Shown here: piece by piece, positions 283 through 18,584 of the stretch | Layout: every line of letters begins with the position of its first letter | How positions within the stretch are numbered: position 1 is the first letter of the stretch | Assembly (NCBI GenBank): GCA_936914905.1 | Contig: CAKZGI010000355.1 | Span: forward strand, 1-35,958 | Direction: 5' to 3' | From: an uncultured Trichormus sp. | Lineage (GTDB): Bacteria; Cyanobacteriota; Cyanobacteriia; Cyanobacteriales; Nostocaceae | Length of the DNA: 35,958 bases | The notes under the pieces: generated by a model | Seen by the model: only the letters and a program-made list of their open reading frames with translations | The model's database searches: none | Told to the model about the DNA's origin: nothing | Program-made: the position numbers and the translations under genes

Positions 283-487
283 TTAATAGCCAAAAACGGT
301 ACCTGGTAACACACCATAGCAATGCATACCGGGATAAGCACCATAGCCTAGACCACCACCATAGCCAAATCCGGCATCAGGTAGACCATACACCTAAACG
401 AGCATAGCCAAGCCGACCAGATGCTAAATCTTGTTCCTCTGTTGGTAAATCCACAAATAATTAACATTTAAGGATTTGAACTGACAT
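283..487 (-). pseudogene. Decayed double-glycine-leader peptide gene
   Basis: Read from the ATG at 487, the first eight codons (MSVQILKC) are followed by TAA at 461-463. The frame then continues as LFVDLPTEEQDLASGR, which aligns residue for residue with the intact leader of the gene at 1976-2212 (MSDKIKKSDLVAELCTEEQQ and onward); the stop falls at leader codon 9. The usual GG cleavage site has become SG-R. A frameshift near residue 36 then moves the frame into a Gly/Tyr-rich tail (GFGYGGGLGYGAYPGM and on) that ends at a TAA at 283-285. The shared initiation box (GCCTCACTTAC on the plus strand, 496-506) is still present 8 nt upstream of the ATG. At least two disabling lesions make this a dead member of the cargo family. 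It was probably once a Gly/Tyr-rich secreted peptide like its neighbour at 1976. Confidence 0.8.
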
Positions 488-630
488 AATTTTTAGCCTC
501 ACTTACAAAAATAGGTCTTTATGACCTAATTAATAAATATATTTTGCAGAGATTAAACTAATCTAAAGTGATAAATAAGAATCTAAATATTTATATCTTC
601 GGAAACAAGTTGATGAGAAAGATAGGAAAG

Positions 631-700
631 GTTAAGGGATAAAGAGTAAAGAGTAAGTGGTGAATCAAAATATTTTATCTTTGCTCTTTTACCCTTAACT
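631..700 (-). terminator. Long imperfect hairpin after the Trp/Gly peptide gene
   Basis: The arm at about 631-652 (GTTAAGGGATAAAGAGTAAA and on) is nearly complementary to the arm at 679-700 (TTTGCTCTTTTACCCTTAAC), giving a stem of about 20 bp. It begins 45 bp past the stop of the peptide gene at 745. It could terminate or stabilise that transcript. Related A/G-rich versus C/T-rich hairpins follow other cargo genes. Confidence 0.5.
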
Positions 701-744
701 AAAAGGAATTGGATATCTATTTTGTGGATTTGTCTAGCTCACTA

Positions 745-987
745 CTACCAATACTGATGTCTTCTTTGCCAGGGACCACCGCCCCAGGGACCACGACCCC
801 AGGGACCACCGCCCCAGGGACCCCAGGGACCACCGCCCCAGGGACCCCAGGAACCACCGCCCCAGGGACCCCAGGAACCACCACCCCAGGGACCCCAGGA
901 ACCACCACCCCAGCCACCAGATATAAGTTGCTGTTCTTCGCTGGATATCTCGTGAACCAAATCAGATGTGATGTGTTTATCTGACAT
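745..987 (-). CDS. Double-glycine-leader peptide, Trp/Gly/Pro repeat type
   Basis: 80 residues. The start is the ATG at 987 (MSDKHITSDLV); GAGG lies about 8 nt upstream inside a partial copy of the cluster's initiation box, so an upstream GTG in frame is not needed. The leader ends LVHEISSEEQQLISGG, a typical substrate for C39 peptidases, with predicted cleavage after GG. The core is a tandem repeat of an 8-residue unit (SWGPWGGG or PWGPWGGG), drifting into GRGPWGGGPW and a basic, aromatic end QRRHQYW. It has no Cys. It is probably matured and exported by the C39 transporter at 2981-5149. The mature function is unknown: an adhesive or matrix glycine-rich peptide, an amyloid-former, or a bacteriocin are all possible. 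The GC-rich repeat also opens a long proline-rich frame on the other strand that is not a gene. Confidence 0.8.
   Translation of the reverse strand: MSDKHITSDLVHEISSEEQQLISGGWGGGSWGPWGGGSWGPWGGGSWGPWGGGPWGPWGGGPWGRGPWGGGPWQRRHQYW
770..915. repeat. 24-bp coding tandem repeat
   Basis: About six drifting copies of a 24-bp unit (CCAGGGACCCCAGGAACCAC-like on the plus strand) encode the SWGPWGGG units of the minus-strand peptide. Arrays like this change copy number by slippage, so length variation between strains is expected. Confidence 0.8.
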
Positions 988-1002
988 AAATTTTAGCCTC
1001 AA

Positions 1003-1529
1003 TTTGGTGTTATCAATCTATACTTTTTTTATAAACACAAATAACAATAAATCCAATAATTCTCTAGTCATAGTTTAATGGATTAAAACTTCTACCTTTT
1101 GGTTGTTATAAATTAAGAGATTATGAATTAGATGGTTGATAATTTATTTTAAAAATTAATCCTATTTCTGTATATTTATATTTTTTAGAAATTTGAAGAG
1201 AAAACTAGATATGGAGTCTAGATGTTTCTTCTCTAAGAAAATCATCGGTTATAGCAGTTGCCAATGTAATTAAGAAAAATTTGAAGACTCAGCTTATAAA
1301 TGGCGTGCGCTGCCCCCCATAGGGTAGCTTAGACATTAGCTGGCTGCTATATTTGCTCAATCTTAAAGAAGATAAGACCCTGATTAGGGTTTCGAGTTCT
1401 ACAAAACTCGATTTATAAAAGGTGAAGTTATTTAAATTTTCTCTTCAAACTAGAATTAGAGTTTTGAAAAACACAAACTATCCTATAGTACCTATTTTGG
1501 GGACTTTACTTACTGGATGTTAGTTCTTA
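1003..1529. other. Intergenic region with hairpins, no gene
   Basis: Separates the peptide genes at 745-987 and 1530-1706. A hairpin at about 1191-1233 pairs AAGAGAAAACTAGA with TCTAGATGTTTCTTCT. Two small hairpins, ACCCTGATTAGGGT (1377-1390) and CGAGTT/AACTCG (1393-1410), lie about 120 bp past the stop at 1530. A GC-rich patch at about 1300-1330 (TGGCGTGCGCTGCCCCCCAT) resembles a small dispersed repeat. No open frame with a leader was found on either strand. Confidence 0.5.
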
Positions 1530-1706
1530 TTAGAACCAGGAAGAGTAATCACAGTCTTTATAGGGTGTAGACTCAGGGTAGGGTTTGTATCCACAGCATT
1601 TACGAGGTTTATAGCAAGGGGAATAATCGCAATATCCCCCGGATATAAGTTCTTGTGCTTCTGTCGTTAATTCCACTAAATTTGATTTATTGATTTGATT
1701 AGACAT
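1530..1706 (-). CDS. Double-glycine-leader peptide, Cys/Tyr-rich core
   Basis: 58 residues from the ATG at 1706 (MSNQINKSNLVELTTEAQEL). GTAAGTGAGGC ends 8 nt upstream of this ATG and supplies the ribosome binding site, so the longer reading that begins upstream is unlikely. The leader ends in ISGG. The 34-residue predicted core starts YCDYSPCYKPRKCCGYKPYP and carries five Cys, seven Tyr and several Lys and Pro. An odd Cys count allows two intramolecular disulfides plus one free thiol, or a disulfide-linked dimer. It is the only strongly Cys-rich member of the group. It is expected to be processed by the C39 transporter downstream in coordinates (2981-5149); no modification enzyme sits nearby. 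The function of the mature peptide is unknown. Confidence 0.78.
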   Translation of the reverse strand: MSNQINKSNLVELTTEAQELISGGYCDYSPCYKPRKCCGYKPYPESTPYKDCDYSSWF

Positions 1707-1830
1707 GATGAATTGCCTCACTTACATTGTTACCTTTGTCAATGTTTAGGTAAGATCCCATATTTAAAAAATCGGATAGTTGGGAAATGACAAAACTCAG
1801 TAAATGGAAAACAAGATTGTCATCACAGCA

Positions 1831-1921
1831 AAGGAGGAGAAGAAGAGATTATTTGAATTCCCTCAAATTTTGATTTTCATTTTGATTGCGTTGAGTGAAT
1901 TAGATGTTTTTTCTCCTCCCT
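1831..1921 (-). terminator. GGAGGAGAA/TTCTCCTCC inverted repeat
   Basis: GGAGGAGAA near 1831-1839 and TTTCTCCTCC near 1911-1920 face each other across about 70 nt. It lies 55 bp past the stop of the peptide gene at 1976. The arms resemble those of the terminator at 7269-7341. The long loop makes termination uncertain. Confidence 0.35.
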
Positions 1922-1975
1922 GTAGTGATTGAAAAGTCTAACTTACAGAACTGTTAGTCTGTAGATGGTGCTGGT

Positions 1976-2212
1976 TTAGTAACCGTAGCCGTAAATAGGA
2001 CGACAGATATAGGTGGGGTAACGTTTACCACCTTGGTAGCCACCACCAGGATAACCATCACCACCTTGGTAACCACCACCAGGATAACCATCACCACCTT
2101 GGTAGCCACCACCAGGGTACCTGCCCATACCGTATTGACCTCCGGAAAGAAGCTGTTGTTCTTCTGTACATAATTCAGCAACTAAATCTGATTTTTTGAT
2201 TTTATCTGACAT
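1976..2212 (-). CDS. Double-glycine-leader peptide, Tyr/Pro/Gly repeat type
   Basis: 78 residues from the ATG at 2212 (MSDKIKKSDLVAELCTEEQQ), with GAGGT 9-13 nt upstream; a longer in-frame reading from about 2251 has no comparable site. The leader ends LLSGG. The core contains three copies of an 11-residue unit YPGGGYQGGDG (the last ends in KR), then YPTYICRPIYGYGY with one Cys. The unit is 33 bp long and nearly identical between copies at the DNA level. The core resembles glycine/tyrosine-rich structural or adhesive peptides more than a typical bacteriocin, but that is only composition. Export and leader removal by the neighbouring C39 transporter is inferred from the GG motif and position. 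The decayed gene at 283-487 is its closest relative in the leader. Confidence 0.82.
   Translation of the reverse strand: MSDKIKKSDLVAELCTEEQQLLSGGQYGMGRYPGGGYQGGDGYPGGGYQGGDGYPGGGYQGGKRYPTYICRPIYGYGY
2028..2121. repeat. 33-bp coding tandem repeat, nearly three copies
   Basis: A 33-bp unit starting CCACCTTGGTAGCCACCACC occurs at 2028, 2061 and 2094 (the last partial), differing by single bases. It encodes YPGGGYQGGDG on the minus strand. The low divergence points to recent expansion or homogenisation. Confidence 0.85.
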
Positions 2213-2412
2213 GATTATTGACCTCAAAAACACATTTAGGTGTGTAATCACCTATGCTTTTATTATTAATGTTTTATCTTTTAATAAAATTGAACTCTGG
2301 TTATATTTTTATTTAAAATATTTCTTTCTTTTAACTCATGATTTTTCAGAAAAATAGTAAAGTTTACGAGATATATATTATTAGTGTTTTTTATTTATAT
2401 GAGCAACAGAAA

Positions 2413-2444
2413 TGTAGAGATATAAAATATAGTTTCTCTCTACA
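2413..2444. terminator. TGTAGAGA/TCTCTACA hairpin between peptide genes
   Basis: An exact 8-bp inverted repeat with a 16-nt spacer sits in the AT-rich gap 2213-2646 between two cargo genes. No gene was found in that gap. An AGGTG/CACCT hairpin at about 2239-2255 lies just upstream of the gene starting at 2212. Confidence 0.35.
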
Positions 2445-2646
2445 CAATGATAATGATGTTGAAATTCTAAATTTGCGGTTCTTGAATTCTTTTTAAGGAA
2501 AACCGGGTTTATTTCATAGGCATTTCATTCAAGACAGATCATAGTTATTCATAACCCTTACAGGGTAAGGGTTTTGCTATGATTAATCCTCGATCACCAT
2601 AAAAACAAGGCAAGAGCCAAATTTGTGCTTCAGGAAAACAAGTTAT

Positions 2647-2946
2647 TTAGTAAATTAGGTAAAAATCACTCAATTCGTTACCAGGATAATTGATTATGGG
2701 TATACCAAAAGTGAAAGAAGTAGCTATGGTAATTTGTGATAACTTATATTTACTACTTTGTGTACTAGATTCACTAACTCCTAGATTTAAGTCACTATCT
2801 GCGGCGCTGTCAATGTCAGTTTTTTGGAAGAAAAAGTCAGTTTTACCAATAACATTAAAAACTTGCCCAGCAATTAATATTTCTTGATCTGCTTCAGATA
2901 AGTCATGAAATAGTGCCTGATGCTTAGATGTCTGATTATCTGCCAT
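2647..2946 (-). CDS. Leader-bearing small peptide with Ala-Gly site
   Basis: 99 residues from the ATG at 2946, with AAGGA about 10 nt upstream. The N-terminus MADNQTSKHQALFHDLSEADQEILIAGQ has the shape of the other leaders (aliphatic-rich helix, LSEADQEIL) but ends in Ala-Gly rather than Gly-Gly; GA and GS variants are accepted by some C39 peptidases, so cleavage after AG is plausible. The core (VFNVIGKTDFFFQKTDIDSA and on) is not repetitive. It is acidic and Ser/Thr-rich and finishes in a hydrophobic stretch, FGIPIINYPGNELSDFYLIY. The stop is 203 bp before the stop-side of the transporter's strand partner, and the gene begins 34 bp after the transporter stop, so it may be co-transcribed with it. 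It may be the primary cargo or a diverged member. Function unknown. Confidence 0.7.
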   Translation of the reverse strand: MADNQTSKHQALFHDLSEADQEILIAGQVFNVIGKTDFFFQKTDIDSAADSDLNLGVSESSTQSSKYKLSQITIATSFTFGIPIINYPGNELSDFYLIY

Positions 2947-2980
2947 AGTGTTAAATCCTTACAAGACGAGAGCATTAATT

Positions 2981-5149
2981 TTATATAGTTAAAAACTTCA
3001 TATGCTCTCCTTTCTGAGAAAGAAAAGTTTCTAGGCTACCTTGCAATTCTACTTCACCTTGATCCATTAACACTATCCAATCTGCTCGATTAACCACACT
3101 GGGACGATGGGTAATCAAAATTGTGGTTTGACCTTTGCGAGATGCCAACAATCTATCTAAGACATGAGTTTCGCTTACTGGATCTAGTCCTGCCGTTGCT
3201 TCGTCTAAGATTAAAATGGGTGGATTGGTAAGTATTCCGCGTGCGATCGCTAATCGTTGTCTTTGTCCACCAGAAAGATTTGCACCAAATTCTCCTAACA
3301 CCGTTTGGTACTTGTTAGGTAATTGACTAATAAAACCATCAGCATCAGCAATTTCACAGGCTTGAACAACTTGATCAAAAGGAATAGAAGGTGTTCCTAA
3401 ACGAAAGTTTTCTAAAATTGATCGACTCCAAAAATGAGGTTCTTGGGGTACATAAACTACTTGTTGTCGCAAACAATCAAGAGAAAGGTCATGGATATTA
3501 AAAACCCCAATGCGAATATTACCTGAAGTTGGCTGATATAAACCTGCTATCAATTTTGCTAAGGTACTTTTACCACAACCTGATTTACCAATTAAAGCAA
3601 TCACCTTTGCACCGGGAAGTTTAAGAGAAAAATCTTCTAATAAATCAACTCTTCCTGCGTGGTGAAATGTAAGATGAGAGAAATGAATATCGGCATCACC
3701 GGCGATTTGTGCAAGAGGCTTTTGACTACCTCCAACTACTTCTGGTGTGGCATCAATAACTTCTAGCAAACGAGAAATTGCAGTTTGAGAACGGAAATAT
3801 TCATCTACTAATCCTACCAAAGAACCAATTAAAGCTAAAACATTCACTTGTAAGGCATTAAAAGCTAGCATTTGACCAATAGTTAATTTGTTGCTAATTA
3901 CTAACATACTGCCTATACCCAGTAGAATTACACCACCAAGAGTAGAAAGAAGCTTTGCAACAGTACCGTTGATAATACCAATTTGAATTGTGCTGAAAGT
4001 AAGATTAGCTAGACGACCAAAACGGCTTTGAAATTCATCCAAAAATTGAGGAGTAGCATTAGTTGTTTTGATTACTTGTGCGCCTTTGAAAGTTTCTACT
4101 AATACCCCTTGATTTTCTGCTCCCAGAACTAATAGACTGCGGGTTTTTTGTTGAAGAATTGGCAAGAATGGCAGAGTTGATAAAGTCATTAGAACACCAA
4201 AGCCAATTACAGCTATTGTTAATTGCCAGCTATAAAACATCATTAAGCAAAATGAAATAACGGCAATAAAAATCTGGCTAGGCAAAAGAACTACTACCTG
4301 AGAAACTAATTGATTAATTTCATTAATATCACTTAATCTACTTGTAATTTCACCACTCCGGCGAGACTCGTAGTAATTTAAAGGTAATTGCAGTATTTTC
4401 CGTCCAAAATCTAAGACTAAGCCTAATTGCAATCGTTGACCAAAATGAGCAATCATAGTAGCTTGAATGACTTGTAAACTACTACTGAATATGGTCATAA
4501 CGACAACAGCAGATACCACAACTGTAAGTAGCTGAATATCTCCCCGCACCAGGACATCATCGGTTAGTAATTGAATTAAAACAGGAGTTCCTAGAGCTAA
4601 GACACCCAGGATAATATTTATCATCAATACCTGAGTGAGTAATCCCCGATAGGGCAATATTCGCATGAAGAAGCGTAACAAGCCACCGTGAGGTTTTTCT
4701 TGGGGTTGTTGAGAAAAACGCTCTGGATCTGGCTCTAGTAAGAGCATGACTCCGTTCCAAGCTGCTACTAATTCTTCGCGTTTGATATAGCGAATACCTA
4801 CAGCCGGATCAGCAATGACATACTTTTTACCCCGTTCTCCATATAAAACAACCCAGTGATAACCGCGCCAATGAATAATTGCTGGTAGTTGGATTTCTGT
4901 GATTCTATCTACAAGTTCTAGTGAGGCTTTAACAGCTCTAGCATTGAATCCTAAATCATCAGATCCACGTTTTAAACCTAATAAAGTTGTACCTAGTTGT
5001 CCTGTTCCTACGGCTTCTCGACCTTTATTTATGCTTAAGAAGCGTCCGTAATATTTGCAAATGGACGCTAGACAAGCTGCACCACAGTCTTCTTCACTTG
5101 CCTGTAAAACAGATTGGTATTTTTTTTGAGATTTGAATGGATTAAACAT
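2981..5149 (-). CDS. Peptidase-containing ABC transporter (C39 peptidase, PCAT)
   Basis: 722 residues from the ATG at 5149; a TTG-started reading adds 18 residues of repeat-like sequence and is less likely. The N-terminal C39 peptidase shows the oxyanion Gln16, Cys22 in QASEEDCGAAC, His98 in GYHWVVLYG and Asp114 in IADPAVG, so it looks catalytically complete. A six-helix ABC exporter membrane domain spans about residues 160-470. The nucleotide-binding domain has Walker A GKSGCGKST (about 521-529), Q-loop YVPQEPH, signature LSGGQRQR (about 625), Walker B ILILDEAT (about 646) and the H-loop ITHR. In this family the peptidase removes double-glycine leaders while exporting the peptide across the inner membrane. 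It follows the HlyD gene by 93 bp on the same strand and is flanked on both sides by leader-bearing cargo genes. HetC and the Synechococcus biofilm transporter PteB belong to the same class; orthology to either is not claimed. Confidence 0.95.
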   Translation of the reverse strand: MFNPFKSQKKYQSVLQASEEDCGAACLASICKYYGRFLSINKGREAVGTGQLGTTLLGLKRGSDDLGFNARAVKASLELVDRITEIQLPAIIHWRGYHWVVLYGERGKKYVIADPAVGIRYIKREELVAAWNGVMLLLEPDPERFSQQPQEKPHGGLLRFFMRILPYRGLLTQVLMINIILGVLALGTPVLIQLLTDDVLVRGDIQLLTVVVSAVVVMTIFSSSLQVIQATMIAHFGQRLQLGLVLDFGRKILQLPLNYYESRRSGEITSRLSDINEINQLVSQVVVLLPSQIFIAVISFCLMMFYSWQLTIAVIGFGVLMTLSTLPFLPILQQKTRSLLVLGAENQGVLVETFKGAQVIKTTNATPQFLDEFQSRFGRLANLTFSTIQIGIINGTVAKLLSTLGGVILLGIGSMLVISNKLTIGQMLAFNALQVNVLALIGSLVGLVDEYFRSQTAISRLLEVIDATPEVVGGSQKPLAQIAGDADIHFSHLTFHHAGRVDLLEDFSLKLPGAKVIALIGKSGCGKSTLAKLIAGLYQPTSGNIRIGVFNIHDLSLDCLRQQVVYVPQEPHFWSRSILENFRLGTPSIPFDQVVQACEIADADGFISQLPNKYQTVLGEFGANLSGGQRQRLAIARGILTNPPILILDEATAGLDPVSETHVLDRLLASRKGQTTILITHRPSVVNRADWIVLMDQGEVELQGSLETFLSQKGEHMKFLTI

Positions 5150-5242
5150 ATAATACAAAAGTTTAAATTCAAAATTTAAAAACAGAAAATGTCTGTAAAT
5201 CAACTAATGACCAATAACCAGTAGCCAATGATTTATGACTAA

Positions 5243-6790
5243 TTACAAATCAGTAATTAATCGAGCTTTCCTGAGAATAAATTGCAGTACAGTTTCTTCA
5301 CGGGAAATAATATCAGTTCGACCTTGCATTCCTGGTTGTACATGACATTGCCGATCACCTCTACCTACATATAATGTTTCTGGTTCAATAGTTACTTCAT
5401 AACCATTGACCTGCTGAATATTTGCGGCTGTATTATTTTGAGATTGGGTTTGTGCAACTGGAAAAATATCTGGGGCAACATTTTTGACAATGCCTTTGAG
5501 AGTGCCGTAATCTGGATAAGGACAAGCAGAAACTTGCATTTGGACTTTTTGACCTGCTTCTACTTTATTAATCTCTTGAGCAGGTACATAAGCCTTGATT
5601 TGTAAAGGAGCATTCAAGGGAGCGATCTGAGCAATGGCTTCACTGGGTTGTACCACTTGTCCAGGGTTGCGAAGTCTAAATTGTAGTAAAGTGCCAGTAA
5701 TAGGTGCGCGAATTACACTATGATTCAAATCAGTTTCTGTTTGTAGCAAGTCCTGACGACCGCGAATAAGCTGCTTTTGAATTTCTAGACGTTGTTGGAG
5801 TAGAGTCTGAAGTTCTCTTTTCAAAGCGGCTAAGGTAGCTTCACTCCTAGCTTGTTCTTGTTTTATTCGTTCCGATGCGATAATTACCACAGAATTACTA
5901 GGATTGATAGCTGTTCTTGCTTTATATAGATTTGTTTTAGCAATTTCTAGGGCTTGTTGTTTTTCTTCAAGGAGAGTTTTAGCGTTGTTTTTAGCTTGTT
6001 CTAACTTGGCTTGGGCAGATTTAACGGCTTGTTGTTTTTCTTCCGACATACTGTGAGATATTGCACCAGAATTGCCGATCGCTTGCAATCTATCTCTTTG
6101 CAACTTGGCAAGATTTAACGCTGTTTGTGCTTCATCTATCGTTGTGGTTAATACTCTCTCTTGTTGTAAGCGTTCAAGTTGTGATTTCGCAAATCTTAAA
6201 GCCACTTCAGCTTGTGACATCTCTGCATTAGCTTTGATTTGTTGATCATTAAAGTTGCGTTGAGTACCACCTAACTCAGCTTGTGCAGCTAAAATTGTGC
6301 GATTATTTAAATTTGCCTGTGCCAGAATCTGAGTATTAATTTCACCTAGTTGAGCATCAATTTGTACAAGTTGTAATTTACCTTGCTGAATATTACTTTG
6401 TAGTTGGCTTTTTTGGGTTTGCAGAGGGGAATCATCAACGTAAGCGATCGCATCCCCCTGAGTTACAATCTGATTGTCTTTAACCACAATCTTTTGCACC
6501 TGACCAGAAATAGCTGACTCAACTAGCCTTAGTTCTCCCATCGGTCTAATACTGGCAGGAACTTTTACCGTTACTTTGTAATTGAGTACAGTTGTCAAAC
6601 CTACACCCACTACAAAAATAGTCAACATTACCCCCACACCAATGCTAGTCCATTTGTGAATTTGGGGTAGAAACTCATTAACTTCAACTAAATGCAGATG
6701 TTCAGAATTCGGATCATGAGATCCATTCCAAACATTGTTTTCATAGCGGCGTAAAGAGTCCACAGCGTTGCACCTTTTTGTTTGAAACAT
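5243..6790 (-). CDS. HlyD-family periplasmic adaptor of the peptide exporter
   Basis: 515 residues from the ATG at 6790. A cytoplasmic N-terminus is followed by one membrane helix at about 48-69 (WTSIGVGVMLTIFVVGVGLT), then a lipoyl/biotinyl-like half motif (VVKDNQIVTQGDAIAYVDD), and long Gln/Ala-rich coiled coils from about 120 to 345. The second lipoyl half (APITGTLLQFRLRNPGQVVQ) and a beta-barrel region finish the protein. It is the expected membrane-fusion partner of the C39 transporter encoded next, joining it to an outer-membrane channel such as a TolC homologue, which is not in this window. The order hlyD then ABC on the minus strand suggests an operon. No strong ribosome binding site is visible. 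The 93-bp gap to the transporter holds tandem TGGTTATTGGTCATTAG-like repeats. Confidence 0.92.
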   Translation of the reverse strand: MFQTKRCNAVDSLRRYENNVWNGSHDPNSEHLHLVEVNEFLPQIHKWTSIGVGVMLTIFVVGVGLTTVLNYKVTVKVPASIRPMGELRLVESAISGQVQKIVVKDNQIVTQGDAIAYVDDSPLQTQKSQLQSNIQQGKLQLVQIDAQLGEINTQILAQANLNNRTILAAQAELGGTQRNFNDQQIKANAEMSQAEVALRFAKSQLERLQQERVLTTTIDEAQTALNLAKLQRDRLQAIGNSGAISHSMSEEKQQAVKSAQAKLEQAKNNAKTLLEEKQQALEIAKTNLYKARTAINPSNSVVIIASERIKQEQARSEATLAALKRELQTLLQQRLEIQKQLIRGRQDLLQTETDLNHSVIRAPITGTLLQFRLRNPGQVVQPSEAIAQIAPLNAPLQIKAYVPAQEINKVEAGQKVQMQVSACPYPDYGTLKGIVKNVAPDIFPVAQTQSQNNTAANIQQVNGYEVTIEPETLYVGRGDRQCHVQPGMQGRTDIISREETVLQFILRKARLITDL

Positions 6791-7746
6791 CAATGAACAT
6801 GAGGGTTATCTGGGTTTGCAGTTGATATTGAGACGGCTTAGATAACTCCATATAACTTGATTGCAAATCCCATCTCACAGAAAAATCACTGTCTGAAGTA
6901 ATCTGTCCTCAGAGAGTAGTAAAAATTTGTAAAAGTGTTCTACTTGGAGAAACATAATCAAGCAGCCAAGTCTAACATTTTATAGTTCGGCGATTATTCA
7001 GAACCACCTCTCGACAAATAACCTTCGAAAAAGATATCTTTGCCTCTATCTTTTGGTGAAGATAAAGAATATCCAAAATATCAACCTTGTCAAAACAGGA
7101 TAACAACAGGTCTTAATTCAACTAAACAGCACCAGAATAAAATAAGTCTCTCACAACAGTAAACATCATGGTCAATAATCCTCTATAATAATTAGTGGGG
7201 GATAAGAAAAGTAACGGCTGACCATAGCAAAAACTTTTCTTTCAATCTCTGAAGTGGGCACGGTTGAGAAAAAAACAGAGGAGAACGCTCAATCTCACTC
7301 AAAGACCTCACTTACGTTGAGCGAGTAGTAAGAATCTCCTCTCCCCCCTTCCTAATTACAAACACCAGATTCCACATATTTACTTGCCGATTGAGTTTTA
7401 AATTACTGACTTAGCCAATAACAATGAAATGATAACTATTGGAATTTAATTGTCAGTGTTTACTAGACAAACAAAATAGTCAAATAACTTTGACGTAAAA
7501 AATTTACTCAAGCCTCAAACTTAACTGTTTAATAATCCCAAATTTATTTGGGAATAAATTGTGTATAAAATTTGCTTTGTGCAGTACTTCTATTCTAGTT
7601 ACAGCATATTGCAGGTAAATTAAGTACATAATTTAAACCAAAAACCTGACTTGTGACTCTTGAATTATGTTGTATTAATGTATAGGTAGCGGAGATTTTA
7701 GTCCGCCAAAATTGACAAAATTTTCTGAAATGAGAAACCATAAACT
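6791..7746. other. 956-bp region upstream of the HlyD gene
   Basis: No coding region was recognised on either strand. It contains the strong hairpin at 7269-7341. The rest is AT-rich and should carry the promoter of the transport operon, which I could not pinpoint. Confidence 0.5.
7269..7341 (-). terminator. Intrinsic terminator between upstream cargo genes and the transport operon
   Basis: On the minus strand GAGGAGA (7335-7341) pairs with TCTCCTC (7278-7284) and CGCTCAA (7317-7323) with TTGAGCG (7286-7292), followed by TGTTTTTTT (7269-7276). The U-run directly after the stem is classic. The loop contains ACCTCACTTAC (7305-7315, plus strand), one base different from the initiation box used by several cargo genes, so it may have formed from the start of a lost peptide gene. 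It implies that the upstream precursors and hlyD are separate transcription units. Confidence 0.65.
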
Positions 7747-8070
7747 CTAGAGTGTTTGACTGGAACCCAAAAATGCTGGCAAAATCATAATATCTTCTGC
7801 ACCAGTACTAGTACCCTTACCCTGTCCAGTGGAATTACCAATACTACCTAGTAGTCCAGAATTAGTTACTCCTTGTAGGGTATTATTACCCAGTTTAGTT
7901 TCTGAACCATCATTGATAGCTTTACCAATTGGATTGACTGGTCTGCCTCTGAGAGCAGTAATAGGGGCAAGAAGTGGATCAGCAGACCCAACCTGACCAC
8001 CAGATAAAAGTTCCTGTTGTTGATCAGATAACTCAACTAGCCGTTGTTGTATACTGATGGAATTTGACAT
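7747..8070 (-). CDS. Double-glycine-leader peptide, Asn/Gly/Ser-rich
   Basis: 107 residues. The leader MSNSISIQQRLVELSDQQQE continues LLSGG and fits the family; cleavage after GG would release about 82 residues beginning QVGSADPL. The core has the pattern GLLGSIGNSTGQGKGTSTGA, which parallels GPAGSTGNSIGTTSAVNTAA in the precursors at 9468 and 10172, so all are likely one paralogous family despite low identity. It has no Cys, few charges and ends PAFLGSSQTL. The start ATG is preceded by AAGGTGA, a usable ribosome binding site. It is the cargo gene closest to the transport operon on the upstream side. A role as a secreted peptide handled by the C39 transporter is inferred; function unknown. Confidence 0.8.
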   Translation of the reverse strand: MSNSISIQQRLVELSDQQQELLSGGQVGSADPLLAPITALRGRPVNPIGKAINDGSETKLGNNTLQGVTNSGLLGSIGNSTGQGKGTSTGAEDIMILPAFLGSSQTL

Positions 8071-8184
8071 GATTGTTCACCTTAGTTAAATTGGCTTTTA
8101 AATTGGGAAAGCCCCACAGATGGCGTGATTTCTTTGTTACAAATAAAAGAAACAAAATCTTGAGGTTCATGAGTCTTCTACTTA

Positions 8185-8484
8185 CTAAACCATTGTTGAT
8201 GAAAATGGTTGACTGGGTGCAAAATTATTTACACCACCCATAGGGGAAACTCCCAGAGCATCAGATGACAAAATTGTTTGTGCGCCACTATTGACATCAG
8301 CTAGTTGGGTATTAATCTGAGAAACATTCCCTAATATACCAGTCTTATTAGTTGAATTTGTATTTCCAGTTCTTTGAGCAAAATTGTTGTTATTAATCTG
8401 AGGTTCAGCACCACCAGACATTAATTCTTGTTGCCCTTCAGATAAATCAATAAATAAGTTTAGTATGATAATTTGACATGACAT
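8185..8484 (-). CDS. Double-glycine-leader peptide, Asn-rich
   Basis: 99 residues from the ATG at 8484. The leader MSCQIIILNLFIDLSEGQQE continues LMSGG. The predicted mature part (about 74 residues, AEPQINNNNFAQRTGNTNST and on) is rich in Asn, Thr, Ser and Gly, with ILGNVSQINTQLADVNSGAQ aligning with the NSIGTTSAVNTAAQDL segment of its paralogues. The leader is more hydrophobic at the start (IIILNLFI) than its neighbours, which could give it an amphipathic helix. It lies 42 bp downstream of the next cargo gene on the same strand, close enough for co-transcription. Asn/Gly-rich composition is compatible with amyloid-type assembly, as known for secreted GG-motif proteins in Synechococcus biofilms, but this is only a resemblance. 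Confidence 0.78.
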   Translation of the reverse strand: MSCQIIILNLFIDLSEGQQELMSGGAEPQINNNNFAQRTGNTNSTNKTGILGNVSQINTQLADVNSGAQTILSSDALGVSPMGGVNNFAPSQPFSSTMV

Positions 8485-8526
8485 GATTGTTTGCCTACCA
8501 TAGTTTTTTAGTTTGGCCGAATTTAT

Positions 8527-8898
8527 TCATCTGCCAAAACCGCTAAAACTTGGTGCAAAGTCACCTAAACCTAATAAGCGACCTAAACCACCTAACCGTT
8601 TTGTAAATTCTGCGGGTAAGCCAGTGAGAACTGGTGCAGAACCCAAAGCCGGAAAGTTAGGTATAGATGGCGCACCCAATCCCAATAAATCTTGTGCAGC
8701 GGTATTGACTTGTGAACTTTGACCTGATGAATTTGCGAAACTACCGTTTAGTCCAGAAAATACAGACCCTCGTAAAACAACCAGTCTGTTAGCAAAATTA
8801 CTGCTAGATAACTCAAAGTCTGTACCGCCAGTTAGAATCTCCTGTTGCTGTTCAGATAAATCTGCCAACAAATCGGATATAACAATATGAAGTGACAT
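8527..8898 (-). CDS. Double-glycine-leader peptide with LGLGAP motif
   Basis: 123 residues from the ATG at 8898 (MSLHIVISDLLADLSEQQQE, continuing ILTGG). After GG the core starts TDFELSSSNFANRLVVLRGS, shares VNTAAQDLLGLGAP with the copies at 9468 and 10172, and ends in a Gly/Leu/Phe tail (RLGGLGRLLGLGDFAPSFSG). The initiation box has drifted: AAGTTGCGCTAAAAATC replaces AAGTGAGGCTAAAAATT, so the GAGG core is gone and translation may be weaker. A longer reading adding ten residues upstream exists but removes the leader-like start. The tail is moderately basic (Lys/Arg), unlike the other members. Likely exported by the C39 system; function unknown. Confidence 0.8.
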   Translation of the reverse strand: MSLHIVISDLLADLSEQQQEILTGGTDFELSSSNFANRLVVLRGSVFSGLNGSFANSSGQSSQVNTAAQDLLGLGAPSIPNFPALGSAPVLTGLPAEFTKRLGGLGRLLGLGDFAPSFSGFGR

Positions 8899-9387
8899 GA
8901 TTTTTAGCGCAACTTGCGTAATATTCAAATACAGGATTCCAGAAGCTGAATCATGGATTTAATTTTCTCTCTGACAAAAGTCAGACAATTCAGAATTTGC
9001 AGTTAAGAAAATAATAGAAAAGCCTCTAGAATCGATACTTGCTACTTCCCAAGAGACAGAAACTTATACGAATTGGGAAAATGATTGCTACAGATGAATT
9101 GCTGAAAAAATTATTAAGTTAAGTTTTCATAATCCCAAATTCAAAGTGGAATTTGGAATTAGATACCTGAAACGGTCTAGTCTAATTTCCAAAATACAGT
9201 TTCTTGGTAAGACAAGGGAATGCAGCAAAGTTCGGTAATTGCCTACGGTAAATATACCAATAAGTCTTCTATTAAAGCATCATGTAAAAATAAGTTGTAC
9301 AATTTTTATCGAAAATCGAAAATGGATTGTTAATCCAACTTCCATATAAAAACTGTTCAGGTTATTGTTACACAAATCCTAAGACTT
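8899..9387. other. Intergenic region, no gene
   Basis: AT-rich spacer between cargo genes, containing an inverted repeat near 9132-9160 (TCCCAAATTCAAAGTGGAAT with TTTGGAATT). I found no leader-like reading frame and no other recognisable element. Confidence 0.4.
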
Positions 9388-9467
9388 CTACAAAAGTGTT
9401 CCGGGCGCTCCTAAACCTAAGCCTCCTAGAGGACTGGTAAGGACAGGATTGATGAAAGCATCGGCTC

Positions 9468-9776
9468 CTATCCTAGTGCTGGATTTCCTGCTGCTAGACC
9501 ATTGAGAATTGGCGCTGCACCCAACGCACCAACAGTCGGGACTGCCGGCGCACCCAATCCCAACAAGTCTTGGGCTGCGGTGTTGACAGCGGAAGTTGTA
9601 CCAATAGAGTTACCAGTACTACCAGCAGGGCCGGAAGCTGTGGTACCTTGCAGGTTTGCTAATCTGTTGGCATAGTTACTACCAGCTAGTTCAAAGTCAG
9701 CCCCACCAGTTAAAAACTCTTGTTGGTGATCAGATAAAGCAACAAACAAGTCGGACGGATTTATTTGATATGACAT
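9468..9776 (-). CDS. Double-glycine-leader peptide, frameshifted copy
   Basis: 102 residues from the ATG at 9776 (MSYQINPSDLFVALSDHQQE, continuing FLTGG), with the full box GTAAGTGAGGC 8 nt upstream. The core starts ADFELAGSNYANRLANLQGT and includes VNTAAQDLLGLGAPAVPTVG. A 234-bp block (9504-9737) is identical to 10289-10522 in the next gene. This copy stops early at ...LAAGNPALG. After the stop, another frame continues GADAFINPVLTSPLGGLGLG and ends with a TAG at 9388-9390, a Gly/Leu tail like that of the intact paralogues. So a small insertion or deletion near 9470 probably truncated the peptide by about 25 residues. Leader and most of the core survive, so a shorter product could still be secreted. 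Confidence 0.75.
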   Translation of the reverse strand: MSYQINPSDLFVALSDHQQEFLTGGADFELAGSNYANRLANLQGTTASGPAGSTGNSIGTTSAVNTAAQDLLGLGAPAVPTVGALGAAPILNGLAAGNPALG

Positions 9777-10171
9777 AATTTTTAGCCTCACTTACGTACA
9801 TAATCAAACAAAGGATTCAAGAGAATTACTTATCGATCCAGTGTTATTTTGGGCAACAAGAAAGCCTATCAGTATCTGTCATGGAATGTCTAGTTGCTAA
9901 CTCCCAACAATAGGAAACCCAGAACGCTCAGTTTGCTCAGTACCAGCAGCACCGCAGAGATCGAGATGCAGCTTGATGTAACTGAACTATAATCATCAGT
10001 TAGTTATGGGAAATAACAGTTGCCGTTGGGGTAGGGGTATCAAGAAAAAGCTGGGTATTTGGTTCTTTGATCACCCCGATACACCATTCCCAAGTCTAGA
10101 TAGGCGAAGTGATGAGGTATGAAAATTAATTTTCTAGCCACCATTGGGAATGGTGACAAGGTTTAACTGAT
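9777..10171. other. Spacer between the two near-identical cargo genes
   Basis: No coding region seen. CACCATTCCCA near 10082 and TGGGAATGGTG at about 10144-10154 form an inverted repeat. The latter is also half of a local hairpin, CACCATTGGGAATGGTG, about 20 bp past the stop of the gene at 10172; it lacks a U-tract. Confidence 0.4.
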
Positions 10172-10561
10172 TTAGATAATGCCAGGTTCAAAGCCACCTA
10201 AACCACCCAAAGCAGGAGTGCCCAAGCCACCTAGTCCACCTAAACCTGCGGCTGGTGCAGCTGCTAATGGGGCTGCTGCTAGACCGTCGAGAATTGGCGC
10301 TGCACCCAACGCACCAACAGTCGGGACTGCCGGCGCACCCAATCCCAACAAGTCTTGGGCTGCGGTGTTGACAGCGGAAGTTGTACCAATAGAGTTACCA
10401 GTACTACCAGCAGGGCCGGAAGCTGTGGTACCTTGCAGGTTTGCTAATCTGTTGGCATAGTTACTACCAGCTAGTTCAAAGTCAGCCCCACCAGTTAAAA
10501 ACTCTTGTTGGTGATCAGATAAGACAACAAACAAATCGGACGTATTTATTTGAGCTGACAT
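10172..10561 (-). CDS. Double-glycine-leader peptide, full-length LGLGAP type
   Basis: 129 residues from the ATG at 10561 (MSAQINTSDLFVVLSDHQQE, continuing FLTGG), with GTAAGTGAGGC 8 nt upstream. The predicted mature peptide is about 104 residues: ADFELAGSNYANRLANLQGT, a Ser/Gly/Thr linker, VNTAAQDLLGLGAPAVPTVG, and an Ala/Gly/Leu repeat tail (APLAAAPAAGLGGLGGLGTP) ending GGFEPGII. It is the first cargo gene of the cluster in transcription order and the intact reference for the frameshifted copy at 9468. The two share 234 identical bases, including the end of the leader and most of the core, while flanks and tails differ; this points to recent duplication or gene conversion. Likely substrate of the C39 transporter; function of the mature peptide unknown. 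Confidence 0.82.
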   Translation of the reverse strand: MSAQINTSDLFVVLSDHQQEFLTGGADFELAGSNYANRLANLQGTTASGPAGSTGNSIGTTSAVNTAAQDLLGLGAPAVPTVGALGAAPILDGLAAAPLAAAPAAGLGGLGGLGTPALGGLGGFEPGII

Positions 10562-10842
10562 AATTGTTGGCCTCACTTACGAAATTAGGTAAATCGCCAC
10601 CTAACAACCCAACTATAAGCATTCTTCCTCACCAATTCATAAATCTAGGGATAGAATTCAAATTTGGTAGTTCTACTTCTCAAAGTAGATATAAAATTTT
10701 TTAATTTTTACAGATATAATCATACCTTTAGAGAAGGTATATTAAATATTTTATGTTTTTGAATTAACTTGCCAAATCCATACAGATTCTTCAGTTTTTT
10801 GAGGGTATATTGCAAGCAATATATAATTTAGTATTTAGCTAT

Positions 10843-12151: not shown

Positions 12152-13806
12152 TTAGAGATTTGAAAAGTAGGAAAATAAATAATACTTTTGACAAGTTGTA
12201 GGTAGGAATTGGAAAATTCGACAACGTTCCTCTGTCAAGTTCAGAATCCTATGAACTCCTTGTGTATTCAGAAAATGAATCCCTTGAAAACATACGCCAG
12301 TTGCTTCCAGTCGGGGAACCCAACGCAGTAGCTCTGAAATATCCAAGGTAAAGTAGGGGATTCTGTAGGTTTATTCAGTTGATTTTCAACTGTAGCTTTT
12401 TGCGTCTTTAATGAGATTCTTAGTTGTCTTTGTCCCAGATTATAAACCAAGAGACACAATGCCATTAACATCATCATTTTCTCTACTCTTTCTGGATTTT
12501 TTACAAAAAGACTATCGGCTAAAAATAACGGGTCTTTGATAAATCTAAATCCTATTTCTGTTGATTGCTGTCCTTTATATATTCTCAATATTTCTATGGT
12601 TTCTAATTAGGTTGTCTCTAAAATATTCGTTGCTAAAATAAATCGACAACAAGAGTTATGATATTCGGTGATTAACTCCTGATTTTCTATTAGTTTATCA
12701 AGTAAGAGGTAAACTACTGTTTGTCCTTTATTTAACCTCTCGGTAATTTCTAAGTCCGATATTTTATGATATTTTAATTTTGCTGCCAGTTCTTTAATTT
12801 TTAATTCCGCTAACGATCTCTGTTCAAATTCTTCTTTGACTAATCTACCTACTTGTCTACTGATTTTTAGAAACTCCTCTTGAATGCTTTGCATTAATTT
12901 CTTTAAGTCTGCTTTTTTCTCTCTGCACTTTCTACTAATAGCCATCTTTGCCCTATTCCCCCATAAGATACTTTTTCTTCTTGACAGCTATATCCTTTGA
13001 TTTCACTTGGTTTTAGTTCTGTACTGGTAAATGCTTTGACCAAGTTCTTGGCTTTTTTAATGGATAAAGGTACTCGACTTATCCATTTCATGTTCGACAT
13101 TAATTTTAAATTACTTTCGCTATATAATGCACTATCAGCCACCATTATACTTTCAAAATCTATTTGTTTGTCATACTCCACCAAGATTTGAGAAAATACT
13201 GCTTTATCTGATTCATTTCCTGATGCTCCTCTAAAAAAAAAATAAGGGTATATCTCTGTCACTACTTACCAGTAAGTATAGCATACATTGTTTTAAGTCT
13301 GGACGATGGTCACAAGAATATCCTTCTGTGATATTAATAGGATTTTCTTGGTTTATTCCTAATTCTTGTCCTAAATTATTTAGACAATTATTATACTCTC
13401 CATCCAAATGCAATGAGCTTGAACCTAAATGGGAATATTTGGTTGCTACTCCATATTTTTTTACTACTTATAAGGCAATTATTAGGAATAATCTAGTTAA
13501 TCCATATTTGTATAGCCTATCCATTACTCTGCCTATTTTATCATTATTTAAATCTTCGGGTTCAATTCCCGCTCCTAATAAATGTCCTATAGCTTTTTCC
13601 TCAGAAAGTTGAGGAAATAAATATAATGGTCTCCATACAAAACCTAGTCCATTCAGAATGATTGCTTTGACTATTTCTCCTGTATTCACTTTCTCTCTAC
13701 TATCTATTAAGAATATCTCATTGATTTTTTCTACAATTCCTATCTCATCTATTATTCCCAAGTGTTCCAAGTTCTTACTCTCAAACTCTTCTTTTTGGTA
13801 ATTCAT
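12152..13806 (-). pseudogene. IS1634-family transposase, multiply broken
   Basis: Fragments in several frames together rebuild a transposase of roughly 550 residues. The N-terminal part from 13806 (MNYQKEEFESKNLEHLGIID and on) has the DUF4277-type start of this family. Middle pieces follow (YCERGEG-unrelated text absent; instead DSALYSESNLKLMSNMKWIS, with DADxAlYS-like DDE region, and IPLSIKKAK-like VPLSIKKAKNLVKAF). The C-terminal pieces include EIGFRFIKDPLFLADSLFVK and HRILNLTEERCRIFQFLPTT. At least four frame changes or stops occur. One of them is a 41-bp insertion at 12293-12333: removing it restores WIFQCFQG, the expected family sequence. No functional protein can be made. Confidence 0.88.
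12293..12333. repeat. 41-bp small dispersed repeat inside the transposase
   Basis: Deleting these 41 bp rejoins the transposase frame exactly at WIFQ|CFQG, which defines the insert to within a base or two. A related sequence occurs at about 31895-31938 (both share AGC.ACTGCG, then GTT.CC and AAGCAA.TGGCGT when read on the same strand). Such short mobile repeats are known from Nostoc genomes as small dispersed repeats. Confidence 0.75.
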
Positions 13807-14181: not shown

Positions 14182-14712
14182 ATGCAACCTATTCAAAGCA
14201 GATGGATTGGGTTTTCATCTAGGTTAATGGTTTTAACAGTGCCATCGGTAACAAAGGCTAATGATCCGGGTCTTTGTTTTATGACGACATCATCAGGTAA
14301 AACTATCAGTTTGGGGGAAATGTGCAAGGTTATACAAACCACGGATACTGTTTTTCGCATCCCTATTAAGCGTCGTCAGGCAAAGACTGCGATTATAGAT
14401 GTTAAGTTTAATGGTGGTCAAGTTTTTGAGATGGTTTTTGATACTGGTGCAAATGGTATCTTGATTACTCAAGAAATGGCGAAAAAGTCGAATATCAAGC
14501 CTGCGGGAAAAAGTCGATTTACTATTGCTGATGGTAGTGTAGTAGAATTCCAAACTACAACAATTCTTTCTGTCTCTGTTGGGATTGTTGTTGTCAACAA
14601 TGCCCAAATTTCTATTGCGCCTAAAGCTGAGATTGGTTTACTTGGTCATGGTTTTTTTGACAATTATGATGTAAAAATTCTGCAAAAACAGATTGAATTT
14701 CATAAGTGTTAA
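14182..14712 (+). CDS. Retropepsin-like aspartic protease (clan AA)
   Basis: 176 residues. The single catalytic motif VFDTGANGILIT places the aspartate at residue 87. Downstream are FTIADGSVVEF (flap-like region) and the glycine-rich IGLLGHGFFDNYDVKI near the C-terminus, the pattern of the bacterial single-domain retropepsin group that works as a dimer. The N-terminus carries a weak hydrophobic stretch (WIGFSSRLMVLTVPSVTKA) that could be a signal peptide cleaved before NDPG, followed by LCFMTTSSGKTISLGEMC, a segment with two Cys found in cyanobacterial homologues. A periplasmic location is likely. The substrate is unknown. The gene begins 156 bp after the insertion sequence, which may have separated it from its original promoter. 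Confidence 0.78.
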   Translation: MQPIQSRWIGFSSRLMVLTVPSVTKANDPGLCFMTTSSGKTISLGEMCKVIQTTDTVFRIPIKRRQAKTAIIDVKFNGGQVFEMVFDTGANGILITQEMAKKSNIKPAGKSRFTIADGSVVEFQTTTILSVSVGIVVVNNAQISIAPKAEIGLLGHGFFDNYDVKILQKQIEFHKC

Positions 14713-15311: not shown

Positions 15312-16007
15312 ATGCAACCTTATCACCAAATCTCGATTATTGAATGTGGTGAACTATTAGTGAAGATTCCTCTGGAGTTATTTGCTGTGGAATCTCCCCA
15401 TCCTTATGAAAAGTTGGGTGCTACTTATGGGGAATACTCACCTTATTATCTCCGTCAGAGTGTTGTTAAGAATTTGATTGAGGCGCAAAATTATTTACAG
15501 TTGCTGCATCCTGGTTGGTATATTCAAATTTTTGATGGTTATCGACCTGTAGCTGTGCAGCAGTTTATGGTGGATTACAGCTTTGGGGAAGCGTTGCGAG
15601 GGAGGGGACTGAGTGCAGAAGAGTTATCACCCCAGCAACGAGAAGAGGTTTGGCAACAGGTATATGAAATTTGGGCTGTACCAAGTTTGGATATGAATAC
15701 TCCTCCTCCCCATAGTACAGGTGCTGCAGTGGATATTACGCTGGTGGATGATGATGCGGAAGTTATAGATATGGGTTCTGCAATTGATGAGATGTCTGTG
15801 CGATCACACCCAGATTATTATGCTCAAAGTAACCCACACTATCATGCTCACCGTCAATTGTTACGAGATATCATGCTAAAAGCAGGATTTCAACGCAATC
15901 CTAGAGAGTGGTGGCATTTTTCTTTTGGTGATCAAATGTGGGGTTGGTTATATAATCAATCCAATCCTGATTATCCCGTCACTGCACGTTATGGGAGATT
16001 GATATGA
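15312..16007 (+). CDS. D-alanyl-D-alanine dipeptidase (VanX/DdpX-type, M15D)
   Basis: 231 residues. The zinc-site motifs of the family are complete: His134 and Asp141 in HSTGAAVDITL, His202 in REWWHFSFGD with Glu199 as the catalytic base, and the substrate-binding arginine in DGYRP (Arg78). The enzyme cleaves D-Ala-D-Ala. In cyanobacteria, which lack a vancomycin-resistance operon, it most likely recycles peptidoglycan dipeptide. No signal peptide is visible, so it should be cytoplasmic. It stands alone: repeats lie upstream and the convergent HAD gene ends 31 bp away. The start ATG at 15312 gives the normal family length; no strong ribosome binding site precedes it. Confidence 0.93.
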   Translation: MQPYHQISIIECGELLVKIPLELFAVESPHPYEKLGATYGEYSPYYLRQSVVKNLIEAQNYLQLLHPGWYIQIFDGYRPVAVQQFMVDYSFGEALRGRGLSAEELSPQQREEVWQQVYEIWAVPSLDMNTPPPHSTGAAVDITLVDDDAEVIDMGSAIDEMSVRSHPDYYAQSNPHYHAHRQLLRDIMLKAGFQRNPREWWHFSFGDQMWGWLYNQSNPDYPVTARYGRLI

Positions 16008-17746: not shown

Positions 17747-18471
17747 ACTCCTTCTGCTACCTTGGGACTACTAACTACATTTTGGGCATCACGAGTTAAT
17801 AAACCGTCTTCCATCTCGACGATACGATCGGCTATATCTAATATGCGGTTATCATGGGTGACTAATAAAATAGCAGTTCCTTGTTCTTTGGCCAGACGCT
17901 GCATGATTTCTACCACATCACGTCCTGATTGTTTATCTAATGCGGCGGTGGGTTCATCTGCTAGGACTAATGGAGGATGATTGACTAGGGCGCGGGCGAT
18001 CGCTATTCTTTGTTTTTGCCCACCAGATAGATTGTCTGGATAGTAGTTCATTCGTTCTGCCAAGCCAACTGATCCCAACATTGCTTCTGACTTCTTAATA
18101 GCTTCTGATTGAGAAATATTATTATTTAATTCGACTGCCATTTGCACATTTTGCCTAGCAGTTAAGAATCCTAGTAAATTGTGAGCTTGAAAAATATAAC
18201 CTATATTACGTCTGCTTTGCACTAGTTTACTTTGACTGGAGCCTGAAAGTTCTTTACCTAAAAATTTTAAACTTCCTTCCTGTACAGACCTCAATCCACC
18301 TATTAGGCTCAGTAATGTAGTTTTACCTGAACCAGATGGACCAGTCATAATCACAATTTCTCCGGCATATATTTCTAGATTAATATCAAATAAAATTTGT
18401 TTTCTAAGCGCACCTCTGCCGTAGTAATGGTTAATATTTTGAATGGCGATTACAGGTTGTGTGTTTATCAT
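17743..18471 (-). CDS. devA: DevA-type ABC transporter ATPase
   Basis: 242 residues from the ATG at 18471 (MINTQPVIAIQNINHYYGRG). An open frame extends 60 codons further upstream, but that part is repeat-derived and overlaps devC, so it is unlikely to be coding. All ABC motifs are present: Walker A GPSGSGKTTL (about 43-52), Q-loop FQAHNLL, signature NLSGGQKQR, Walker B LVLADEPTAALD and the H-loop VTHD. It belongs to the MacB/LolD-like group that powers DevBCA exporters, which in Anabaena move heterocyst glycolipids through the cell wall. It is the last gene of the devB-devC-devA operon, separated from devC by 113 bp that contain heptameric repeats. Confidence 0.9.
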   Translation of the reverse strand: MINTQPVIAIQNINHYYGRGALRKQILFDINLEIYAGEIVIMTGPSGSGKTTLLSLIGGLRSVQEGSLKFLGKELSGSSQSKLVQSRRNIGYIFQAHNLLGFLTARQNVQMAVELNNNISQSEAIKKSEAMLGSVGLAERMNYYPDNLSGGQKQRIAIARALVNHPPLVLADEPTAALDKQSGRDVVEIMQRLAKEQGTAILLVTHDNRILDIADRIVEMEDGLLTRDAQNVVSSPKVAEGV

Positions 18472-18575: not shown

Positions 18576-18584
18576 TTCTTACCT

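What the first reader, a model, noticed from the sequence alone, without database searches (positions are those of the whole stretch)
283..10561. One C39 transporter serving about nine dissimilar double-glycine peptides
A complete C39 peptidase-ABC gene and its HlyD partner sit between two sets of leader-bearing genes (five upstream, four plus a dead one downstream). The leaders are alike (…EEQQLISGG type) while cores differ sharply: Trp/Gly repeats, Tyr/Pro/Gly repeats, Cys/Tyr-rich, Asn-rich, and Ala/Gly/Leu-rich. No lanthionine, cyclodehydratase or radical-SAM enzyme is nearby. The set looks like a multi-cargo secretion system, perhaps for matrix, adhesion or amyloid peptides as with the Synechococcus EbfG/PteB biofilm system, or a bank of bacteriocins.
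Basis: partly seen in the sequence, partly recalled or inferred. Interest (0 to 1): 0.85.

Follow-up and report, generated by a model that had tools for sequence, protein, structure and literature searches.

The report
Three-part secreted-peptide cluster, one transporter
A filamentous cyanobacterium carries one peptide exporter flanked by nine intact genes for small secreted peptides that fall into three classes with a conserved layout and shared control signals, which looks more like a kit for building something outside the cell than a bag of unrelated toxins, though no function has been tested.

Summary
Nine intact double-glycine-type precursors (five upstream, four downstream) and one dead one flank an HlyD gene and a short C39-ABC gene with intact catalytic residues. 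The kind is known: it matches "group III" of Wang 2011, and the upstream five are NCBIfam "CTB family bacteriocins".

New here is the order behind the "dissimilar" cargo, seen in 80 related loci. Class A lies upstream, single-copy class B mostly right behind the transporter, and a variable class C further downstream. A and B are lost together (40 loci both, 16 neither, 1 A alone) while transporter and usually C stay. A and B cores are each modelled as one long beta-hairpin. C arrays tend to end with an aromatic-Gly-Arg/His peptide. Many cargo genes share an AAGTGAGG start element, repeated inside a conserved element upstream of hlyD.

My best reading is a co-regulated export system for surface or matrix peptides, A and B co-assembling. 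This is inferred: secretion, cleavage, fibres and activity are untested, and an antimicrobial role is not excluded.

The parts
10172..10561 (-). A1, class A (CTB family) precursor, GG leader
   Evidence: (NF038167 78.7 bits, cutoff 32)
9468..9776 (-). A2, class A precursor; core shorter (77 aa) than in three relatives (93-102 aa)
   Evidence: (82.2 bits)
8527..8898 (-). A3, class A precursor
   Evidence: (75.5 bits)
8185..8484 (-). A4, class A precursor, Asn-rich
   Evidence: (48.9 bits)
7747..8070 (-). A5, class A precursor
   Evidence: (36.5 bits)
7255..7350 (-). Conserved, probably structured element upstream of hlyD, with the 10-mer GTAAGTGAGG in a loop; strand of any RNA unsettled
   Evidence: no Rfam match
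5243..6793 (-). HlyD-family adaptor
   Evidence: HlyD_3 1.6e-17
2981..5203 (-). Short-type C39 peptidase-ABC transporter (740 aa as an open frame)
   Evidence: Gln34, Cys40, His116, Asp132, Walker A Lys545 invariant in 81 of 81
2647..2946 (-). B, single-copy class B precursor, AG at the cleavage site; C-terminus differs from relatives
1976..2212 (-). C1, Tyr/Pro/Gly repeats ending RYPTYICRP
   Evidence: 33-bp DNA repeat
1530..1706 (-). C2, Cys/Tyr-rich
745..987 (-). C3, Trp/Gly/Pro repeats with Arg/His tail
   Evidence: 24-bp DNA repeat
283..487 (-). C4, dead precursor gene (stop plus frameshift)
   Evidence: open copy in congener
10571..10603 (-). Dyad TAGGTG..ACCTA plus AAGTGAGG before A1
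2237..2254 (-). Dyad TAGGTG..CACCTA before C1
497..528 (-). Dyad (TAGGTC..GACCTA) plus AAGTGAGG before dead C4

Best explanation
One C39-ABC/HlyD machine (with an outer-membrane channel encoded elsewhere) recognises a shared leader helix, cuts after GG and exports a co-regulated set of peptides that build or coat the cell surface or matrix. Class A hairpins and the single B hairpin are needed together and probably co-assemble into beta-sheet material. Class C supplies lineage-specific low-complexity peptides (acidic/basic, Cys-rich, aromatic-Gly-Arg/His) that may act as adhesive or cross-linking parts. Shown by sequence: gene set, intact active site, conserved layout, joint loss of A and B, dN/dS below 1 in the cores, shared start elements. 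Predicted: the hairpins. Inferred: cleavage, export, assembly and role.
For: Active-site residues invariant in 81 of 81 transporters. Class A upstream in 86 of 86, B directly downstream in 43 of 45. A and B co-occur in 57 loci: 40 both, 16 neither, 1 A only, Fisher p 3e-13; L038's truncated B was set by hand to present, otherwise 39/16/2. Seven independent pairs on supported branches of a quick tree agree, p 0.016 (up to 0.031; in a few of 200 random pairings six agreed and one did not differ; same hand-set L038), although A and B lie on opposite sides of hlyD-C39. Relics of A remain in several losers. A and B models: two strands of 21-25 residues each, block-mean pLDDT mostly 80-92 there. B's strands alternate conserved and variable faces, the conserved one Q/T/I/T/A/N/L and Q/T/Y/L/Q/T (p 0.006 and 0.011). 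Cargo genes share AAGTGAGG (51 of 82 A, 57 of 132 C in the close loci; expected 0.4 and 0.2). No clear candidate immunity gene. Precedent, abstract and passages seen: EbfG1-3 form amyloid, and PteB, a C39 protein, is implicated in EbfG secretion (PMC9981879, PMC4997328).
Against: No secretion, cleavage or assembly data. Model confidence is modest (mean pLDDT 73 for A and 66 for B; pTM 0.41 and 0.36). A and B cores show no sequence homology to each other, and class A's strands show no significant face alternation. Many C cores are cationic and Gly/Trp-rich, as some antimicrobial peptides are (recalled). In this genome A2 is shortened, B's C-terminus differs and C4 is dead, so the system may be decaying here; against the close congener several dN/dS values exceed 1, on few changes. 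Two of 52 related loci keep the transporter with no C gene found, one of them (Cuspidothrix, L045) with no leader peptide found at all.
Confidence: 0.5

Rival explanations
1. A bank of unmodified bacteriocins: the peptides are released to inhibit related strains, and class C diversity reflects an arms race.
For: Databases name class A 'CTB family bacteriocin'. Class C repertoires turn over fast: 329 peptides of all classes fall into 112 core clusters, 83 of them singletons, 66 of these downstream. 35 aromatic-Gly-Arg/His cores carry net charge 0 to +10. In passages seen of PMC9846622, CTB genes of Nodularia rise under phosphate starvation, and bacteriocins are discussed there as allelopathic.
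Against: No clear candidate immunity gene among 61 leaderless frames of the cluster. Class A and B are found across many genera (42 loci and 73 of 147 sampled family genomes) with core dN/dS below 1. The name comes from genome annotation; the listings showed no title or abstract with an activity test of CTB peptides.
Confidence: 0.25
2. A and B together form an oligomeric beta-barrel or ring in a membrane, each chain giving one long hairpin.
For: The weak top structural matches of both models are mostly hairpins of ring-forming proteins (pore stems, flagellar MS-ring collar), E 0.16 or worse; for B, Z at most 3.6. A-B mutual dependence would fit two components.
Against: None of the matches is significant; any long hairpin would give them. 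No strand has a clearly hydrophobic face.
Confidence: 0.08
3. Signals for development or cell-cell communication, as proposed for the unknown substrate of HetC.
For: Peptidase-ABC export of a signal is proposed for HetC (passages of PMC10986499).
Against: Several copies of A per locus and long repeat cores are unusual for signals (inference). The transporter's at-least-78%-identical form is absent from about half of the sampled family genomes (70 of 147 have it, my count), which argues against a core developmental role.
Confidence: 0.1

Closest known systems
Cyanobacterial group III 'bacteriocin' clusters (Wang, Fewer, Sivonen 2011, PMC3140520; parts 1-3 of 5 read)
   Same: Short C39-ABC without cyclic-nucleotide domain, HlyD, no SurA or LanM, several precursors with diverse cores
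   Different: The parts read do not describe the A/B/C positional classes, A-B co-loss, the shared start element or the conserved element upstream of hlyD
CTB family bacteriocin, NCBIfam NF038167
   Same: A1-A5 pass its cutoff
   Different: B, C1, C2, C3 do not; the family covers only part of the cargo
PteB/EbfG1-4 of Synechococcus elongatus (PMC4997328 part 1 of 5; PMC9981879 abstract and passages)
   Same: One C39 transporter serving several GG or GA peptides; possible beta-rich assembly (here by prediction only)
   Different: Here nine intact peptides in three classes; the CTB profile finds nothing in the S. elongatus control genome; no biofilm or amyloid data here
Curli-type functional amyloid (recalled)
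   Same: Idea of a single-copy partner (B) and a multi-copy subunit (A)
   Different: Different secretion route; no direct sequence comparison was made, and PDB profile searches with A and B found no relative

Membership tests
C39 peptidase-ABC transporter (PCAT) | C39, ABC membrane and ATPase domains with catalytic residues | tested here: met
C39 peptidase-ABC transporter (PCAT) | cleaves these leaders after GG | not testable with these tools
   needs enzyme assay; B has AG
Wang group III cluster | short-type transporter (no CAP_ED) plus HlyD | tested here: met
Wang group III cluster | no SurA, LanM or second peptidase-less ABC in the cluster | tested here: met
   (ORFs scanned; the DevBCA genes lie about 7 kb away)
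Wang group III cluster | transporter falls in clade III of their tree | not tested
   their reference sequences were not at hand
CTB family bacteriocin NF038167 | profile score over 32 bits | tested here: met
   A1-A5 only: 78.7, 82.2, 75.5, 48.9, 36.5 bits
CTB family bacteriocin NF038167 (B, C1-C3) | profile score over 32 bits | tested here: not met
   14.2-20.8 bits
EbfG biofilm peptides | sequence relation to the class A cargo | tested here: inconclusive
   no CTB match in S. elongatus control genome; direct comparison not possible
EbfG biofilm peptides | secreted, amyloid-forming, needed for biofilm | not testable with these tools
   wet experiments
Class II bacteriocin | dedicated immunity gene beside the precursor | tested here: inconclusive
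   of 61 leaderless frames those shared with 9 or more loci (7215-7325, 7268-7411, 10564-10701, 10655-10759, all plus strand) overlie the element upstream of hlyD or the A1 promoter region; I read them as non-coding but ran no coding test, and a fast-changing immunity gene cannot be excluded
NHLP/Nif11 leader RiPPs | NHLP or Nif11 leader model match | tested here: not met
   no such NCBIfam match for the eight precursors or for A2

The most novel reading that the evidence does not exclude
A widespread, self-contained kit for an extracellular composite: obligately paired A and B hairpin peptides polymerise, tandem-repeat class C peptides give each lineage its own adhesive chemistry, and a previously undescribed structured RNA upstream of the exporter gene carries the same 10-base start element as the cargo genes, so that exporter and cargo output are matched by competition or antisense pairing.
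Probability: 0.15. Interest if true: 0.85.

Novelty: new variant of a known kind. Interest (0 to 1): 0.6.

Why it matters
Such clusters are common in cyanobacteria, and their genes are labelled bacteriocins on sequence grounds. The A/B/C dissection gives a testable split: A and B should act together, C separately. If A and B form fibres, many annotated bacteriocins of these filamentous cyanobacteria would be structural proteins. The cargo start element and the conserved element upstream of hlyD offer a handle on how one exporter's load is balanced, and a cheap way to find orphan cargo genes (the one orphan known in this genome is marked by it).

Tried and rejected
Structure searches: Foldseek on both models (best E 0.68 for A, 0.16 for B) and VIA-align on B alone (Z at most 3.6) gave nothing significant. 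Profile searches of A and B in the PDB gave nothing convincing (best E 0.43 and 0.23).

A and B as one sequence family: rejected on sequence, since the profile match covers mostly the leader and cores alone do not match. Class A of the window and upstream peptides of the more distant clade do look related (E 2e-16 with leaders; cores alone E 2e-4 against 0.03 reversed).

Known regulators: NtcA and PHO-box patterns are not enriched before cargo genes. The sRNA Yfr1 exists in the genome and carries CCTCAC, only six bases complementary to the cargo start element; left as a lead.

The dyad alone is not specific: the exact 6+6 form occurs at four places in the genome, one in the window; one of the others lies inside what reads as a coding stretch. 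With GTGAGG behind it, it occurs twice in the genome, both in the window (16 matches in 31 genomes against 5 for the reversed pattern).

The dyad as an RNA hairpin: undecided. Pairing is kept (87.5% of cells against 24-43% when slid), but RNAalifold predicts nothing and G-U changes are no commoner than A-C changes (22 against 20), which fits a DNA operator as well. For the element upstream of hlyD the outer stem gave 14 G-U against 7 A-C (p 0.19), while one inner pairing leaned the other way (2 against 14), so the strand is unsettled. A single-sequence fold of the window copy was not clearly more stable than shuffles (z -1.08).

The plus-strand Thr/Pro/Gly frame opposite C3 (709-984) was rejected as a gene: it is the other side of the repeat, and the leader lies on the minus strand.
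Full report
WHAT IS THERE. The window is a whole contig (C355) of a genome of 5.87 Mb; by its transporter the nearest named relative is Sphaerospermopsis kisseleviana. On its minus strand lie five leader-bearing genes (A1-A5), hlyD, a C39-ABC gene, four more leader-bearing genes (B, C1, C2, C3) and a dead one (C4). The transporter has Pfam C39, ABC membrane and ATPase domains and no cyclic-nucleotide domain; Gln34, Cys40, His116, Asp132 and the Walker A lysine are invariant in 81 of 81 compared transporters. A 15-column leader matrix, seeded with eight window leaders and iterated on 80 related loci, scores the nine intact window peptides 26-46; scans of 20 shuffled loci per round gave up to 16.9 in the first, eight-sequence round, 4.4 in the second and none over 4 later. 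It found 320 leader ORFs over 10 bits in the 80 loci, a few of them clearly false (odd last residues).

THREE CLASSES. Core clustering gave 112 clusters for 329 peptides (window included), 83 of them singletons. Cluster 0 (class A, 86 members) lies upstream of the transporter in 86 of 86. Cluster 1 (class B, 45 members) lies just downstream in 43 of 45; the two others are in distant loci. Class B ends in GG in 26, AG in 18, SG in 1. The other leader genes downstream are class C. A1-A5 pass the NCBIfam CTB cutoff; B and C1-C3 do not. Transporters split into 57 loci, window included, at 76% identity or more and 24 below. Class C occurs in 50 of 52 close loci with at least 2.5 kb downstream and in 0 of 20 distant ones, one 185-residue frame (L070) left out by its length. 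Several distant loci have A-like and B-like genes, so A+B with hlyD-C39 looks older than C (inference).

A AND B GO TOGETHER. In the 57 close loci 40 have both, 16 neither, 1 A only (Fisher p 3e-13). One locus (L038) has a truncated B that I counted as present; counted as absent the table is 39, 16, 2. On a quick transporter tree A changes at least 9 times and B 10; seven independent pairs on supported branches agree (p 0.016, up to 0.031; in a few of 200 random pairings six agreed and one did not differ). The two lie on opposite sides of hlyD-C39, so one deletion that spares the exporter cannot explain this. Relics of A remain in several losers. In 147 sampled family genomes the transporter is present at 78% identity or more in 70 (my count), and class B is detected in 73, some of these beside more distant transporters.

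SHAPE. AlphaFold2 on 86 class A and 45 class B sequences gives for each core one long two-stranded hairpin: A strands 26-49 and 52-76, B strands 34-54 and 60-80. Confidence is fair in the strands (block-mean pLDDT mostly 80-92) but low overall (mean pLDDT 73 and 66, pTM 0.41 and 0.36). In B every second residue is conserved (p 0.006 and 0.011) and the conserved face is mostly uncharged; class A shows no significant alternation. No structural match is significant.

CLASS C. 35 of 128 cores are aromatic-Gly-Arg/His-rich by a rule made after seeing them; they take the last place in 28 of 41 arrays with two or more genes and other places in 7 of 78 (none of 20,000 within-locus draws as high). None of 86 A and none of 45 B cores fits the rule. 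The window's C3 and C1 sit on 24-bp and 33-bp DNA repeats, and repeat make-up differs from the congener. Core dN/dS against two related genomes is 0.13-0.61 where defined, against 0.11-0.12 for the transporter (point estimates; leaders range to 1.4 on few changes). Against the close congener several values exceed 1 on very few changes (same call).

CONTROL SIGNALS. AAGTGAGG stands before 51 of 82 A and 57 of 132 C genes of the close loci, expected 0.4 and 0.2. In the whole genome AAGTGAGG followed at 4-12 bases by ATGTC occurs five times (reversed control: one): four in this cluster and one before an orphan leader peptide on another contig, C307. A dyad like TAGGTG..CACCTA precedes many first genes: a stem of 7 or more stands before 33 of 40 first A genes (expected 11), 28 of 52 first C genes (expected 9) and 32 of 74 later C genes (expected 14), but only 6 of 29 later A genes (expected 6). 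The exact dyad alone is not specific to the cluster. A conserved element about 460 bases upstream of hlyD (window 7255-7350) is found in 47 of 57 close loci and 0 of 24 distant ones, also where A is lost; 46 of 47 carry GTAANTGAGG. Its outer stem has five pairs with changes on both sides. A covariance model built from 41 of the 47 rows matches 25 of 60 family genomes at E 0.01; 23 of them score 70 bits or more, all among the 28 of those 60 with the close transporter (my count). The other two are weak, one of them (G056) without the close transporter. No Rfam family matches. The transcribed strand and function are unknown.

AGAINST KNOWN SYSTEMS. The gene set fits group III of Wang 2011 (PMC3140520, parts 1-3 of 5 read). 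The nearest tested system is PteB/EbfG, where GG motifs and the C39 cysteine matter for biofilm (PMC4997328, part 1 of 5) and EbfG1-3 form amyloid (PMC9981879, abstract and passages). The CTB profile finds nothing in the S. elongatus control genome. Searches of the open PMC library listed no paper that, from titles and abstract starts, describes this layout, the A-B coupling or the element; subscription papers are not held, and one search listed 12 of 18.

VERDICT. A real, conserved, multi-cargo export locus of a known kind with a new internal logic. Surface or matrix function is the best guess (0.5), bacteriocins the main rival (0.25).

Noticed in passing
window, about 10290-10560 and 9505-9775: A1 and A2 are nearly identical over about 85 codons, and the congener's two copies share at least one residue change with each other, which suggests gene conversion.
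   Followed up: partly
contig C307, 785-1036 (L005): Orphan leader peptide with the same start element; it may be a stray class C gene, or the contig may once have joined this one.
   Followed up: partly
window 12268-13806: Broken IS1634-family transposase pieces beside the cluster.
   Followed up: no
window 17743-21212: DevBCA-type exporter genes, about 7 kb beyond the cluster's upstream end.
   Followed up: no
window 14182-14712 and 15312-16007: A retroviral-type aspartyl protease and a D-Ala-D-Ala dipeptidase (M15) next to each other.
   Followed up: no
own genome contig C396 (L090): A second C39-domain protein (720-aa frame, so short-type in size) with no leader peptide in the 3.4 kb held.
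   Followed up: no
L045 (Cuspidothrix issatschenkoi): Transporter and hlyD kept but no leader peptide found within 10 kb on either side.
   Followed up: no
upstream of class B genes in several loci (L010, L024, L050, L058): GTGTGAGG before B, eight bases complementary to the CCTCACAC of the sRNA Yfr1.
   Followed up: no
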